A stretch of DNA of 64,000 nucleotides from positions 124,001 to 188,000 of the forward strand of contig PUDQ02000001.1 of NCBI GenBank assembly GCA_002964805.2, given 5' to 3'. Made by a program: the position numbers and the translations under genes. This DNA comes from Trametes villosa (Eukaryota > Basidiomycota > Agaricomycetes > Polyporales > Polyporaceae). Positions 2,436 through 6,620 of the stretch are shown here, in pieces. Below the pieces are notes generated by a model. That model was not told where the DNA came from. It did no database searches and worked only from the letters and a program-made list of their open reading frames with translations. Every line of letters begins with the position of its first letter. The first letter of the stretch is position 1.

Positions 2436-4119
2436 ATGGGTGCGTGTATGTCTTCAGGCGGCCTTGAGGTCAGCGAGGAGGAGAAGCGTCTGCACAGAGA
2501 GGCCGAGAAGAACCTCAAGGAGGTCCGTATCTCCACATATCCTCCTCCGTCCGACATTGCTCACCCCAACCGCAGGCACGGCTGAAGATGGCAAAACAGG
2601 TCAAGGTGTGTGCCATTCCCCTCCGCCCGCGCATACCGCCATGGTTCTAACAGAGCCCGGCCCCAGGTCCTGCTCCTCGGATCCGGAGACTCCGGAAAGT
2701 CCACCATCCTCAAGCAGATGCGCCTCATCCACCGCGTCCCCTTCTCCTCACAAGAGATCGAGTCCTACCGCCAGCTCGTCTTCAACAACCTCACCCATGG
2801 CCTCTCCAACGTCATCGACGCCATGGAGGACATGGAGCTCGACGTCTCGGACGAGAACAGAGAGCTCGTCCAGATGATCCAGGACGCCTCGGATATCAAG
2901 GACGGCGAGCCCTTCCCGCTCGAGTACCGCGACGCCCTCAAGCGGCTCTGGGAGGACCCCAACATCCAGGCGGCGTACTCGCGAGGCAACGAGGCAGCGC
3001 TGCCCGAGAAGTGAGTTCGCTCCGTAACCGGGCCCGGTCGGGAGCTGCGCTGATGACCCATCTCCGCTCAGCTTGAACTACTACTTCGCGGACCTGGACC
3101 GGTTATTCGAGCCCGCCTACGAGCCCACTGAACAGGACATCGTCCACGCGCGTGCACGGACAATCGGCATCACGGAGACGGTCTTCACTCTGCGCGACCA
3201 CGAGATGCTCATGGTCGACGTCGGCGGCCAGAAGAGCGAGCGGAGAAAGTGGATCCACTGTTTCCAGGATGTCACAAGTATCCTGTTCCTCGTCAGCTTG
3301 AGCGGGTTTGATCAGTGCCTTGTGGAAGACAAGGATGCAGTACGTCCCAGAGTTCTGTCAACCCGGGAGCCGGTCAATTTGACTCTTGCCCCGCCAATAG
3401 AACCAGATGCAAGACGCGATGACAATTTGGGACTCAATATGTCACTCGCAATGGTTCAAGCAGACATCCATCGTGGGTTCTATCTTGTAACGAGAGATGG
3501 GCGAAGAATGTAGCTCATCCCGCGATGCGCCCAGATTCTCTTCCTCAACAAGAACGACCTGTTCGAGAAGAAGGTACAACATTCCGACATCAAGAACTTC
3601 TTCCCGGTAGGTTAAACTTTCGAGTCGGCGTTGAGGACCCTCCGCTCATTATACATGCTCAGGATTACGATGGTGAGGCAGGCGACGCAAAAGCCGGGCG
3701 TGAGTACTTCCGGAAACGGTTCGCGAGGCTCGCCCAGAAGGCGAACGCGAAGGAGAGGGAGATCTACATCCAGTACGTCACTTTCGGATCTGCTCGTTCG
3801 ACCTCCATTGCGTCGCCCGAACGGCGGCATTACTAACGGATCGTCCCCAAGCGTAACGACCGCGACGGATACGGCCATGCTTCGGGTGGTCATGGCTGCT
3901 GTTGAAGGTGCGTCCGCCCTGGTTCTCTCACAAAGTGTAGCTGACTAACTGTTCCTCGACAGAGTGAGTGTTCCTGTTCTTCTCTTTGGCCCGGCCCCTT
4001 CGTTGTCTATATTTGGCACCTTTGCTCCTCTGCACTGCGACGCAATGGTGCTTACGGACGCACCGTCTTCATTCAGCATCATTCTACGACAGAGCCTCCA
4101 AACGGCAGCGTTGATATAA
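2436..4119 (+). CDS. Heterotrimeric G-protein alpha subunit
   Basis: This is a 360-residue GTPase that would couple membrane receptors to signalling at the plasma membrane. Exons: 2436-2522, 2576-2605, 2667-3010, 3072-3339, 3401-3472, 3535-3606, 3663-3772, 3852-3907, 3963, 4077-4119. The start MGACMS fits an N-myristoylation signal. Visible motifs are the P-loop GSGDSGKST (residues 44-52), switch I around R183-T184, switch II DVGGQ (203-207), NKND (272-275) and TTATDT (330-335). Length matches the family norm (353-360). The C-terminus, ending in TAALI, lacks the cysteine found in pertussis-sensitive subunits. The last two introns require a one-nucleotide exon; without it the protein would end after residue 346, short of the receptor-binding helix. 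GSGDSGKS and DVGGQK differ slightly from the classical GAGESGKS and DVGGQR, suggesting one of the expanded, less canonical mushroom paralogs (inference). Confidence 0.95.
3963..3963 (+). other. Candidate single-nucleotide exon of the G-alpha gene
   Basis: The single A at 3963 sits between an acceptor (ctgactaac branch-like motif, then cgacag at 3957-3962) and a perfect donor (gtgagt at 3964-3969). Exon 8 ends one base into a codon (G at 3907). The final exon, opening at C4077 after attcag, needs two bases. G + A + C gives GAC (Asp) and restores the canonical G-alpha C-terminus. Direct splicing from 3907 to 4077 breaks the frame. Stopping splicing at 3963 gives an immediate TGA. Confidence 0.75.
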
Positions 4120-6620
4120 CTCCCCCTCGTCCTTGTTTATCGTACCGACCCGCCTGGTACTGCTTAATGCCCGGTGTCGCACACCATTATTCCCCAGCCC
4201 GTCTCACGGTATCATTATCTATCACCCCGCATCTGTCCATCCGTCATCGTCGTTCCGCCCATGGCATATGTAGCTTCCCGCTCTTCCTTTCGTTTTGCTT
4301 TCGGTTTCCCGGTCTGTCCTTGCAGAGTCGTGACCGCTGATGTAACTCATCATGACCTTCTCTATCCCCTGCCACGCCCGACCCGGCCGCTCTTTCCCCG
4401 TCGCCCGCACGCGCGCTCCTTCAAACGCGGAAACGACCCGTTCGCTGCTACTTGTGGCGCGGACGCATTCCTGGCGTCCCTTCTGGAAACCGCCCCTCCC
4501 GAAACGCCAACCTGCACAAATGCATATCCCATCCAACCGCCGGCGCGTTCTCCAGTACGATCATCAGCAGAAACGTGAGTGCCATTCACTCTCTTGGCCC
4601 CTCCCCCTGCACGACACGTGCTTCCCCCCCGGCCCCGTCCTCCTCCCGAGCCTGCGCCGCAATTACGCCTCATGCTCGCTGTCCCGCCCTGGCCCGACGC
4701 TCACTCCTATCCACCCCCTCCTGCAGATCCGCGAAATCATGTTGTGATCGCGCAGCGCGATCCCCCCTGGCCCGCGCACCCTACCGGCTAGGACCGCATC
4801 AAGCACCGACGCCCAGCCCGCCACCGTTCGCACGCCTGTCCCGTTCCTGGTCACCCCCTGCGGATGATCGCCGGGACGCAGTCCACGGGGGCGAGGCACT
4901 GGCTCTAAGCAGGGAACGGGAGCGGGGGGCCCGGGGGAGGAGGAGCGACGGCGGAGGGGGGTGGGTGCTGGGCGGGTGGGTGTAATTTATATGTCCCGGG
5001 GCGGCGCCGCGCCCCTGGCGGAAAACCGCGGGCTCGGGTTGGGCGTTGGCGTTGCTTCGCGGCGCCGTTCCTCGCGACGCCGGCGTCCTGGGCGCCTGAC
5101 CCCGCGTTCCGCACGGCGTCTCGTCTCCCTTCGTTCATTCCGTTCGCCGTCTCACGTCTTCCTTCTGCACGCACACACACCTTCAGCTCGGGCTACGCCT
5201 TCGCCTTCGCACATCTCCTTCCTCTGGATCCGGATCCCCATTCGTCCCCTACCCGCCCCTGCTTCGAACACTCCCTTCCGACTCCGAGCCCGCCGCACGT
5301 TCGCTTCGCTTTCGCTTTCAGCTCCGTCGCCGTATTATTATGCGGGCGCGATACATTGCGCCCGCTTGCATTAAGTCGCTTCGCTTCGCCCCGCCGTCCG
5401 CGCCCGTGTGTTTATTCCTCGTATCCTCTATATCCCAGTCTCTCTCTCTCGCCTCTCGCTCCTGCCCATGTTGCTCGCACTCTCACGTCCCTCGCAGTGT
5501 ATACATACGCTACACGTACCGCCCACCCCATTAATATCCCCTTCGCCCGTCTCCCTCTCCCACCCGACGTCGAACCGCGCGAACACGCCCCTGGGGAGTG
5601 GTACCGAGCCCCGACCGTAGGACGCCGCAGACATATTCGACACGAGGAACCGAGAATTCAAAATCAGCTTCCGATGATGCCCTCTGGCCTCATTCGCAGG
5701 GCAGCGCCAGGGCAGCATGCGTACGCGATATTGCACTACAACAATGCTGGAGCCTCCTCGACCCGCCGTCTCAGTGCCATACGCATACGCATCTTCTGCT
5801 TGCGGAGGCATCTGAATCTGCTTGAGCCTCACGTCCCTGCCATGTCTGTGATGGCGGGATCTGATGCGTGCCGCGGACGTCTGTTGGAACAGCAGAGGTC
5901 CGAGGTCGATGGACAGACACATGTATCACCAGTACACCGAAGCCCAGCCAAGTCCCAACGCGACGTGAACGTAGCTCTATCCACCTCCGACGTTCTTCTC
6001 GAGTGTTCGCGCCGACGTCAGCCGCCGGCCGGAGTCCGACGGCGTGCTCGCATCGATGTCGCGGAGTGCGCGCGGCGCCGCCGGTACGTCGCAAAACATA
6101 CGCTGTCTGCGACATCAGAACATGCGCGAACATATCAGCAGCGCGCCATCCCGACGTCCGTGCATCACGGTGCGCGGTGGGATACCTCCCGGGACCCGGA
6201 CGACGAGTGCTCGTTTCTAGTCCACGGAGTTAGATGCATATGTACACCACGCTCCGGCTGGGTGGCAGCGGCGGCGACACAGGTATGGGCTAAGTGCCAA
6301 GGAGCGTTTCCGTGGACTGCGAACAAGTGCGGGTTCACGCGGCCCAGCACACAAGGCGAGTACAGCCAAGTTGCACAGTATACTGACGTCCGATGCCAGG
6401 GAATTGGTGAACTGACCCCTATGTAGTTGCACTGCGCTACCCGGCAGCATCGCTGCTGAGCGATGCATACAACGGGACGCAAGCCGTCCATGGAGGGTAA
6501 CCCAAGAATACTAATTGCACATCTTACAGTATACAAGGTCCACCCGTCCCCGTCCGCGCCGTGGCAACGTATAAGTTTCGAGTCTCGAAGCACGCCGGAC
6601 GCCGGGCGTTATAAACACGC
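4120..6620. other. Gene-free stretch between G-alpha and the reductase
   Basis: No recognisable gene in 2.5 kb. The longest plus-strand frame (5356-6426) gives a low-complexity, Arg/Pro/Ser-rich product with no domain, and I regard it as chance. From about 4580 to 5560 the plus strand is rich in CT runs such as repeated ctctct near 5440, typical of promoter or leader DNA. A donor-like gtgagt at 4575 and an acceptor-like ctcctgcag near 4720 would be compatible with an untranslated spliced RNA. Confidence 0.5.

What the first reader, a model, noticed from the sequence alone, without database searches (positions are those of the whole stretch)
3908..4076. One-nucleotide exon needed to complete a G-alpha subunit
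Exon 8 ends in phase 1 and the last exon starts in phase 2, so one extra base is required. A lone A (3963) sits exactly between a good acceptor with a branch-like ctgactaac upstream and a perfect gtgagt donor. Including it gives 1083 nt, 360 residues and a canonical C-terminus; omitting it gives either a frameshift or an immediate stop that removes the receptor-contacting helix. Single-nucleotide exons are known but extremely rare. If this one is skipped conditionally, the cell would make a receptor-uncoupled G-alpha.
Basis: partly seen in the sequence, partly recalled or inferred. Interest (0 to 1): 0.9.

Follow-up and report, generated by a model that had tools for sequence, protein, structure and literature searches.

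The report
One-base exon feeding two Gα tails
A mushroom signalling-protein gene appears to need an exon only one base long, and that single base leads into either of two alternative endings of the part of the protein that touches receptors, so one gene probably makes two differently wired G proteins.

Summary
Exon 8 (3852-3907) ends in phase 1 and the last exon (4077-4119) needs phase 2. Inserting A3963 gives 1083 nt, 360 aa and a Gα C-terminus of standard length. CAG-A-GTRAGT occurs once in both strands of the window.
Independent support: I held 180 homologues from capped lists. All 72 from short intronless contigs (cDNA-like) have the Asp codon that the lone A completes. Of 108 records from named organisms, 2 have Asp there, only one with a sensible tail. 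Four of these models fit an A-skip frameshift over their full tail, and 8 of 8 that read through the tail-1 acceptor fit AG|C.
A second C-terminus, TIISRNIREIML, lies downstream (4556-4574, 4727-4747), in frame only after the same A. Of the 72, 29 carry this kind of tail and 43 the first. Best reading: a one-nucleotide exon, probably widely conserved, whose donor serves two mutually exclusive terminal exons that exchange Gα's receptor-contacting tail.
No RNA from this organism was available. Single-nucleotide exons are known in plants and Fusarium; my ten literature listings showed no such combination.

The parts
2436..3907 (+). Gα gene body, exons 1-8 (2436-2522, 2576-2605, 2667-3010, 3072-3339, 3401-3472, 3535-3606, 3663-3772, 3852-3907); exon 8 ends in phase 1 (GAA G|)
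   Evidence: PF00503, E 9.1e-121; listed homologues up to 93% identical
3908..3962 (+). intron 8, 55 nt, GTGCGT...CTGACTAAC...ACAG
3963..3963 (+). one-nucleotide exon A: second base of the Asp codon (GAC with tail 1, GAT with tail 2)
   Evidence: Asp in 72 of 72 cDNA-like homologues held
3964..4076 (+). intron 9 (tail 1), 113 nt, GTGAGT...ATTCAG
4077..4119 (+). alternative terminal coding exon, tail 1: (D)IILRQSLQTAALI-stop
   Evidence: 43 of 72 cDNA-like homologues carry this kind
3964..4555 (+). intron 9b (tail 2), 592 nt, same donor A|GTGAGT, acceptor CTCCAG; no CTNAY branch-like site within 60 nt of the acceptor (intron 4 lacks one too)
4556..4574 (+). 19-nt exon, first part of tail 2: T ACG ATC ATC AGC AGA AAC (D-TIISRN)
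   Evidence: tail-2 kind in 29 of 72 cDNA-like homologues
4575..4726 (+). intron 10b, 152 nt, GTGAGT...CTGCAG
4727..4747 (+). end of tail 2 coding: IREIML-stop (TGA)

Best explanation
The gene encodes one Gα subunit (its closest named relatives are labelled 'heterotrimeric G protein alpha subunit 4' or GPA2-like, of mushroom fungi). Shown from sequence: the mRNA needs the lone A3963 between exon 8 and the terminal exon to make the Asp codon of helix α5, and two different terminal coding segments lie downstream, each in frame through that A. Inferred: intron 8 is removed (probably first, because an acceptor and a donor one base apart cannot both be occupied at once), creating the donor GA|GTGAGT at the end of a normal exon. 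That donor is then joined either to 4077 (tail 1, D-IILRQSLQTAALI) or to 4556 and on to 4727 (tail 2, D-TIISRNIREIML). The tails are mutually exclusive because tail 1 carries its own stop. Since the last dozen residues of Gα are the main receptor contact (established knowledge), the choice probably changes which receptors the Gα couples to. The arrangement seems conserved across several orders of Agaricomycetes and wrongly modelled in nearly all of the 108 named-organism records I held. The lone exon most simply arose by insertion of intron 8 one base upstream of an existing donor.
For: Phases, lengths and splice signals. Tail 1 keeps 25 residues after TDT, as in the solved Gα chains whose alignment was printed, without gaps around the Asp. 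Asp follows MAAVE in 72 of 72 short-contig proteins (contigs 1.1-3.2 kb, intronless, hence cDNA-like), 43 with tail 1 and 29 with tail 2; in the first, tail-neutral search it is 48 of 48 (31 and 17). Of 108 named-organism records, 63 read Gly after AVE (fits exon 8 G|GT), 31 stop at AVEE* (fits G|A|GTRA read on), and 0 have Asp plus tail 1. Four models (Somion, Boletus, Daedalea, Heterobasidion) are compatible over their full length with an A-skip frameshift of a tail-1 exon. Eight of 8 models reading through the tail-1 acceptor have Ser there (fits AG|C). Both tails on near-identical bodies: P0143 (tail 1) and P0129 (tail 2), both cDNA-like, 376 of 390 body residues identical; P0098 (Suillus genome, tail 1) and P0125 (cDNA-like, tail 2), 345 of 348. 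One search shows no close second copy of this part of the gene in the genome (next best place 37% identical).
Against: No RNA reads from this organism could be mapped. That the short contigs are cDNA is inferred from length and lack of introns. No DNA of a related mushroom could be fetched (searches found none), so conservation of the lone exon elsewhere is deduced from protein models. AVEE* alone would also fit a species without intron 8 (exon ending GA|GTRA), and Ser before tail 1 could also be TCN. In Mycena the Asp for tail 2 appears in genome models (P0139; P0142 reads ..HADTIVSNN), so there the A may be joined to the tail-2 exon. P0064 (Flammulina filiformis, held only in nr without a contig, perhaps a deposited clone) and P0090 (Coprinopsis cinerea) end AVEE*. 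The tail-2 acceptor lacks a CTNAY site nearby, but so does intron 4. Receptor switching is untested.
Confidence: 0.87

Rival explanations
1. One intron of 165 nt runs from a weak donor at 3912 to 4076, giving ..AVEGAIILRQSLQTAALI without a lone exon.
For: In frame. Five genome models carry tail 1 with one extra residue after Gly, as if a donor 4 nt downstream had been used.
Against: Adds one residue within helix α5. No cDNA-like protein has the extra residue: tail 1 is 25 residues after TDT in all 42 that could measure, tail 2 is 24 in all 27 measured (3 of the 72 not measured; one of them, P0071, has a tail one residue shorter still), and all 72 have Asp. The donor is GTCCGC.
Confidence: 0.04
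2. The lone A is usually skipped or intron 9 retained, and the functional product is a truncated or frameshifted Gα that cannot contact receptors.
For: 31 of 108 named-organism records end AVEE* and 4 fit the skip form. P0064, possibly a deposited clone, ends AVEE*.
Against: 0 of 72 cDNA-like proteins have these forms. Both tails are conserved in kind across many versions (33 distinct among 43 tail-1, 25 distinct among 28 tail-2 of 13 residues), which would not be expected if unused. Such models are what predictors unable to place a one-base exon would produce.
Confidence: 0.05
3. The lone exon is real, but tail 2 is a decayed or rarely used remnant in this organism, so there is one functional Gα.
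For: Intron 9b is 592 nt against 53-113 for the nine introns of the tail-1 form and 152 for intron 10b, and its acceptor has no CTNAY site within 60 nt.
Against: Tail 2 is fully in frame with GTGAGT donors and CAG acceptors and matches the tail-2 kind closely, e.g. P0041 DTIISNNIREIML differs at one position. Intron 4 also lacks a CTNAY site.
Confidence: 0.2
4. A twin intron (stwintron): 3908-3962 sits inside a larger intron and no base is retained.
For: Two nested or adjacent introns with a shared border look similar (recalled literature, no call).
Against: Leaving no base gives a frameshift, and all 72 cDNA-like homologues keep the Asp.
Confidence: 0.02

Closest known systems
One-nucleotide exon of Fusarium CYP621A P450 genes (PMC12940212)
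   Same: A fungal one-base exon between two introns that supplies the middle base of a codon in a conserved motif. It was found from a phase 1/phase 2 mismatch, and the authors report reads across the joint.
   Different: Ascomycetes of one genus and a P450. The exon is a G there and an A here. The parts of that paper I read describe no alternative terminal exons.
One-nucleotide microexons of plant APC11 and VPS55 (PMC4674806 abstract, PMC8831610 passages)
   Same: Conserved across a large clade, systematically missing from annotations; VPS55 has conserved GTRAGT donors.
   Different: Plants. In the passages I saw the base is included or lost by intron retention; it does not feed two alternative protein ends.
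Gα splice variants of animals (Drosophila Gαq, PMC5765363 passages; Lygus Gαq variants, PMC4553527 passages; mammalian GoA/GoB recalled)
   Same: One Gα gene gives several proteins by splicing. That some of these differ at the C-terminus is recalled, not seen in the passages.
   Different: Animals; no one-base exon that I know of (recalled); independent origin is likely (inference).
Placozoan mitochondrial cox1 single-base exon (PMC5436844 abstract)
   Same: One-base exon.
   Different: Mitochondrial, flanked by group I introns, not spliceosomal.

Membership tests
Gα subunit (PF00503) | match over the whole family profile above the cut-off | tested here: met
   403.5 bits against a cut-off of 48.8, residues 19-349 on profile 3-333 of 333, both isoforms
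Gα subunit (PF00503) | α5 helix of standard length with the conserved Asp | tested here: met
   tail 1: 25 residues after TDT, Asp present, gap-free there in the two printed alignments to solved Gα chains. Tail 2 has the Asp but is one residue shorter
Gα subunit (PF00503) | GTP binding and receptor coupling | not testable with these tools
   needs biochemistry
Single-nucleotide spliceosomal exon | one base between an AG acceptor and a GT donor, required for frame | tested here: met
Single-nucleotide spliceosomal exon | conserved in relatives | tested here: inconclusive
   protein-level deductions strong; no relative's DNA available
Single-nucleotide spliceosomal exon | junction reads from the same organism | not testable with these tools
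   no RNA data held
Mutually exclusive alternative terminal exons | two terminal segments in frame from the same donor in one gene | tested here: met
   no close second copy of the gene seen
Mutually exclusive alternative terminal exons | both forms present as transcripts of one gene | tested here: inconclusive
   near-identical bodies with both tails: P0143/P0129 and P0098/P0125; same-gene origin inferred

The most novel reading that the evidence does not exclude
Across mushroom-forming fungi one Gα gene has for a long evolutionary time used a one-base exon as an obligatory splicing hub: its donor is regulated (mating, development or nutrition) to join one of two tails, rewiring the same Gα between two receptor sets, and the whole switch has been hidden because annotation programs cannot place a one-base exon.
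Probability: 0.35. Interest if true: 0.92.

Novelty: new variant of a known kind. Interest (0 to 1): 0.78.

Why it matters
Single-nucleotide exons are rare curiosities. Here one appears conserved across several mushroom orders and sits at the branch between two Gα tails. If confirmed, mushroom genomes encode a receptor-coupling choice by splicing that annotations have lost: in 0 of the 108 named-organism records I held does the first tail appear with its Asp, and in 1 the second. It would give a simple test system for how a spliceosome handles a one-base exon and for which receptors each tail serves. It would also mean that most Gα proteins taken from gene models of this subfamily lack a correct C-terminus.

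Tried and rejected
Tried without result: relatives' DNA in viral contigs (no match) and genome contigs (24 pattern matches, none a relative by tblastn). Literature searches for fungal Gα splice variants or mushroom micro-exons listed nothing on point by title and start of abstract (one search listed 20 of 28). A paper on long-read Coprinopsis transcripts, its DOI recalled, was not held. A Coprinopsis splicing paper (PMC10532568) has no occurrence of six searched terms, among them G protein and microexon. Paralogues in the same genome were checked: L009 has its intron elsewhere and L010 codes straight through this position, so they neither support nor oppose.

Considered and rejected: extra-residue single intron, twin intron, skip or truncation as the main form (see rivals). 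AVEE* endings were first noted as a sign of cag|A|gtra; I now use them only as consistent, since exon..GA|GTRA would give the same ending. Same-length Gly for Asp in 12 genome models (4 tail 1, 8 tail 2) may come from transcripts whose extra base was mis-mapped onto a flanking G; this is a guess. No structure was predicted, because a predicted helix would not tell the splice forms apart.

Caveats on counts: the 72/108 split was typed by hand from the source columns (jgi/lgn/ena against the rest); 3 of the 72 are partial (P0136, P0140, P0176, 223-267 aa). Searches used tail queries and so favour proteins with tails; one search did not. One search found 3607 proteins, one search found 145 and one search found 191; only the best 120 of each were listed. 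The database is clustered at 90%, so two tails of one species are usually merged. One search left two of the 72 unclassified (P0077, P0175); with a looser rule put them in tail 2 and tail 1. The residue sets allowed were somewhat wider than those seen; the control used the same sets.

Full report
Observation. Rebuilding the gene from the raw sequence gives ten coding segments from 2436 to 4119. Exon 8 ends in phase 1 and the segment at 4077 needs phase 2. A3963 lies between a 55-nt intron (GTGCGT...CTGACTAAC...ACAG) and a 113-nt intron (GTGAGT...ATTCAG). With it the CDS is 1083 nt and 360 aa. Without it the frame shifts to ..AVEASFYDRASKRQR; with intron 9 retained the protein stops as ..AVEE. 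The block CAG-A-GTRAGT is found once in both strands of the window, and YAG-A-GTRAGT in shuffles of the 169-nt stretch at a fraction of 0.0001 of 20,000. The product is a Gα (PF00503, 403.5 bits), and its C-terminal part aligns without gaps to the solved Gα chains printed across the Asp in question.

What the relatives say. A search with the 360-aa protein found 3607 proteins and listed the best 120. These fall into two sharply different sets. The 72 records from named organisms mostly end badly: 24 at AVEE*, others in AVEG plus intron-like residues, and so on. The 48 proteins from short contigs (sources jgi, lgn, ena; a ten-segment gene read without introns, so cDNA-like) all have AVED followed by a sensible tail. 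Two more searches with the two tails brought the total held to 180: 72 cDNA-like (contigs 1.1-3.2 kb) and 108 from named organisms. Asp follows AVE in 72 of 72 and in 2 of 108; of those two, P0076 continues in an out-of-family frame and P0139 (Mycena indigotica) has tail 2.

Deducing relatives' DNA from their models. Sixty-three of 108 models have Gly after AVE, which fits exon 8 ending G|GT. Four models (Somion, Boletus edulis, Daedalea quercina, Heterobasidion irregulare) are, over 9 to 14 positions, compatible with what one gets by joining exon 8 straight to a tail-1 exon without the A; random peptides starting AS reach 8 positions in 0.185% of 20,000 trials. Eight of 8 models that read through the tail-1 acceptor have Ser before I(V/I)LR, fitting AG|C. 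So exon 8 ending in phase 1 and tail 1 starting in phase 2 is probably not special to this genome; the same mismatch is implied within single models in Polyporales, Boletales and Russulales, and piecewise in Agaricales (orders recalled from the organism names, no call). The 31 AVEE* endings fit G|A|GTRA but would also fit a gene without intron 8.

The second tail. The cDNA-like proteins carry two kinds of ending after AVE: 43 of 72 like DIVLRSNLEVAALI (14 residues) and 29 of 72 like DTIISNNIREIML (13 residues, one with 12). This window encodes both. Downstream of tail 1, after CTCCAG, lie T ACG ATC ATC AGC AGA AAC (4556-4574), a GTGAGT...CTGCAG intron, and ATC CGC GAA ATC ATG TTG TGA (4727-4747). 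Joined to exon 8 through the same A it reads ..AVED-TIISRNIREIML, 359 aa. I saw no close second copy of the gene in this genome, so the two tails belong to one gene here. Elsewhere, bodies nearly identical but with different tails exist: P0143/P0129, both cDNA-like (376 of 390 body residues), and P0098 (Suillus genome) / P0125 (cDNA-like; 345 of 348). The Armillaria solidipes pair P0148/P0131 differs more (319 of 347) and may be two genes.

Mechanism. Shown: the need for the A and the two in-frame endings. Inferred: ordered splicing, with intron 8 probably removed first so that A|GTGAGT becomes the donor of an ordinary exon; choice of acceptor 4076 or 4555; mutual exclusion by the stop in tail 1. 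Tail 2's acceptor lacks a branch-like CTNAY within 60 nt (as does intron 4) and its intron is 592 nt, so tail 1 may be the default in this species. From general knowledge, the last residues of Gα are the chief receptor contact, and the Asp itself corresponds to the Gαs residue D381 that touches receptors (recalled). Swapping the tail for one a residue shorter should therefore alter coupling. That last step is untested.

Against. No reads from this organism; cDNA status of the contigs inferred; no relative's DNA; Mycena models suggest that in that genus the A can sit with the tail-2 exon; one nr-only record (P0064, Flammulina filiformis) and one Coprinopsis cinerea record (P0090) end AVEE*; clustering at 90% hides same-species pairs and minor forms; the lists were capped at 120 each.

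Known cases. One-base exons are on record for plant APC11 and VPS55 (PMC4674806 abstract; PMC8831610 passages) and for Fusarium CYP621A, whose authors call it the first for a fungal gene (PMC12940212: abstract, introduction, results and discussion read); a mitochondrial case is the placozoan cox1 (PMC5436844 abstract). Gα splice variants are on record in insects (PMC5765363 and PMC4553527 passages). My ten searches of an open-licence library listed, by title and start of abstract, neither a one-base exon in a basidiomycete nor a tail choice in a fungal Gα; subscription papers and preprints were not covered.

Noticed in passing
window 4556-4574: The first part of tail 2 is itself a 19-nt microexon between introns with GTGAGT donors.
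   Followed up: yes
L011, L012, L016, L020, L021 and other loci: The genome has many diverged Gα-like loci besides the ordinary ones. Some look like near copies on different contigs (C10 near 3121337 and C77 near 523015 give the same scores; C20 and C47 copies are similar), so they are either recent duplicates or haplotype contigs.
   Followed up: partly
P0131 and P0148 (Armillaria solidipes): Two records under one species name carry tail 2 and tail 1 on bodies only 319/347 identical, so possibly two genes that each kept or lost one tail.
   Followed up: partly
P0139, P0142 (Mycena): In Mycena the Asp codon for tail 2 seems to be contiguous with the tail-2 exon, so the one-base exon may not be needed for tail 2 there.
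   Followed up: partly
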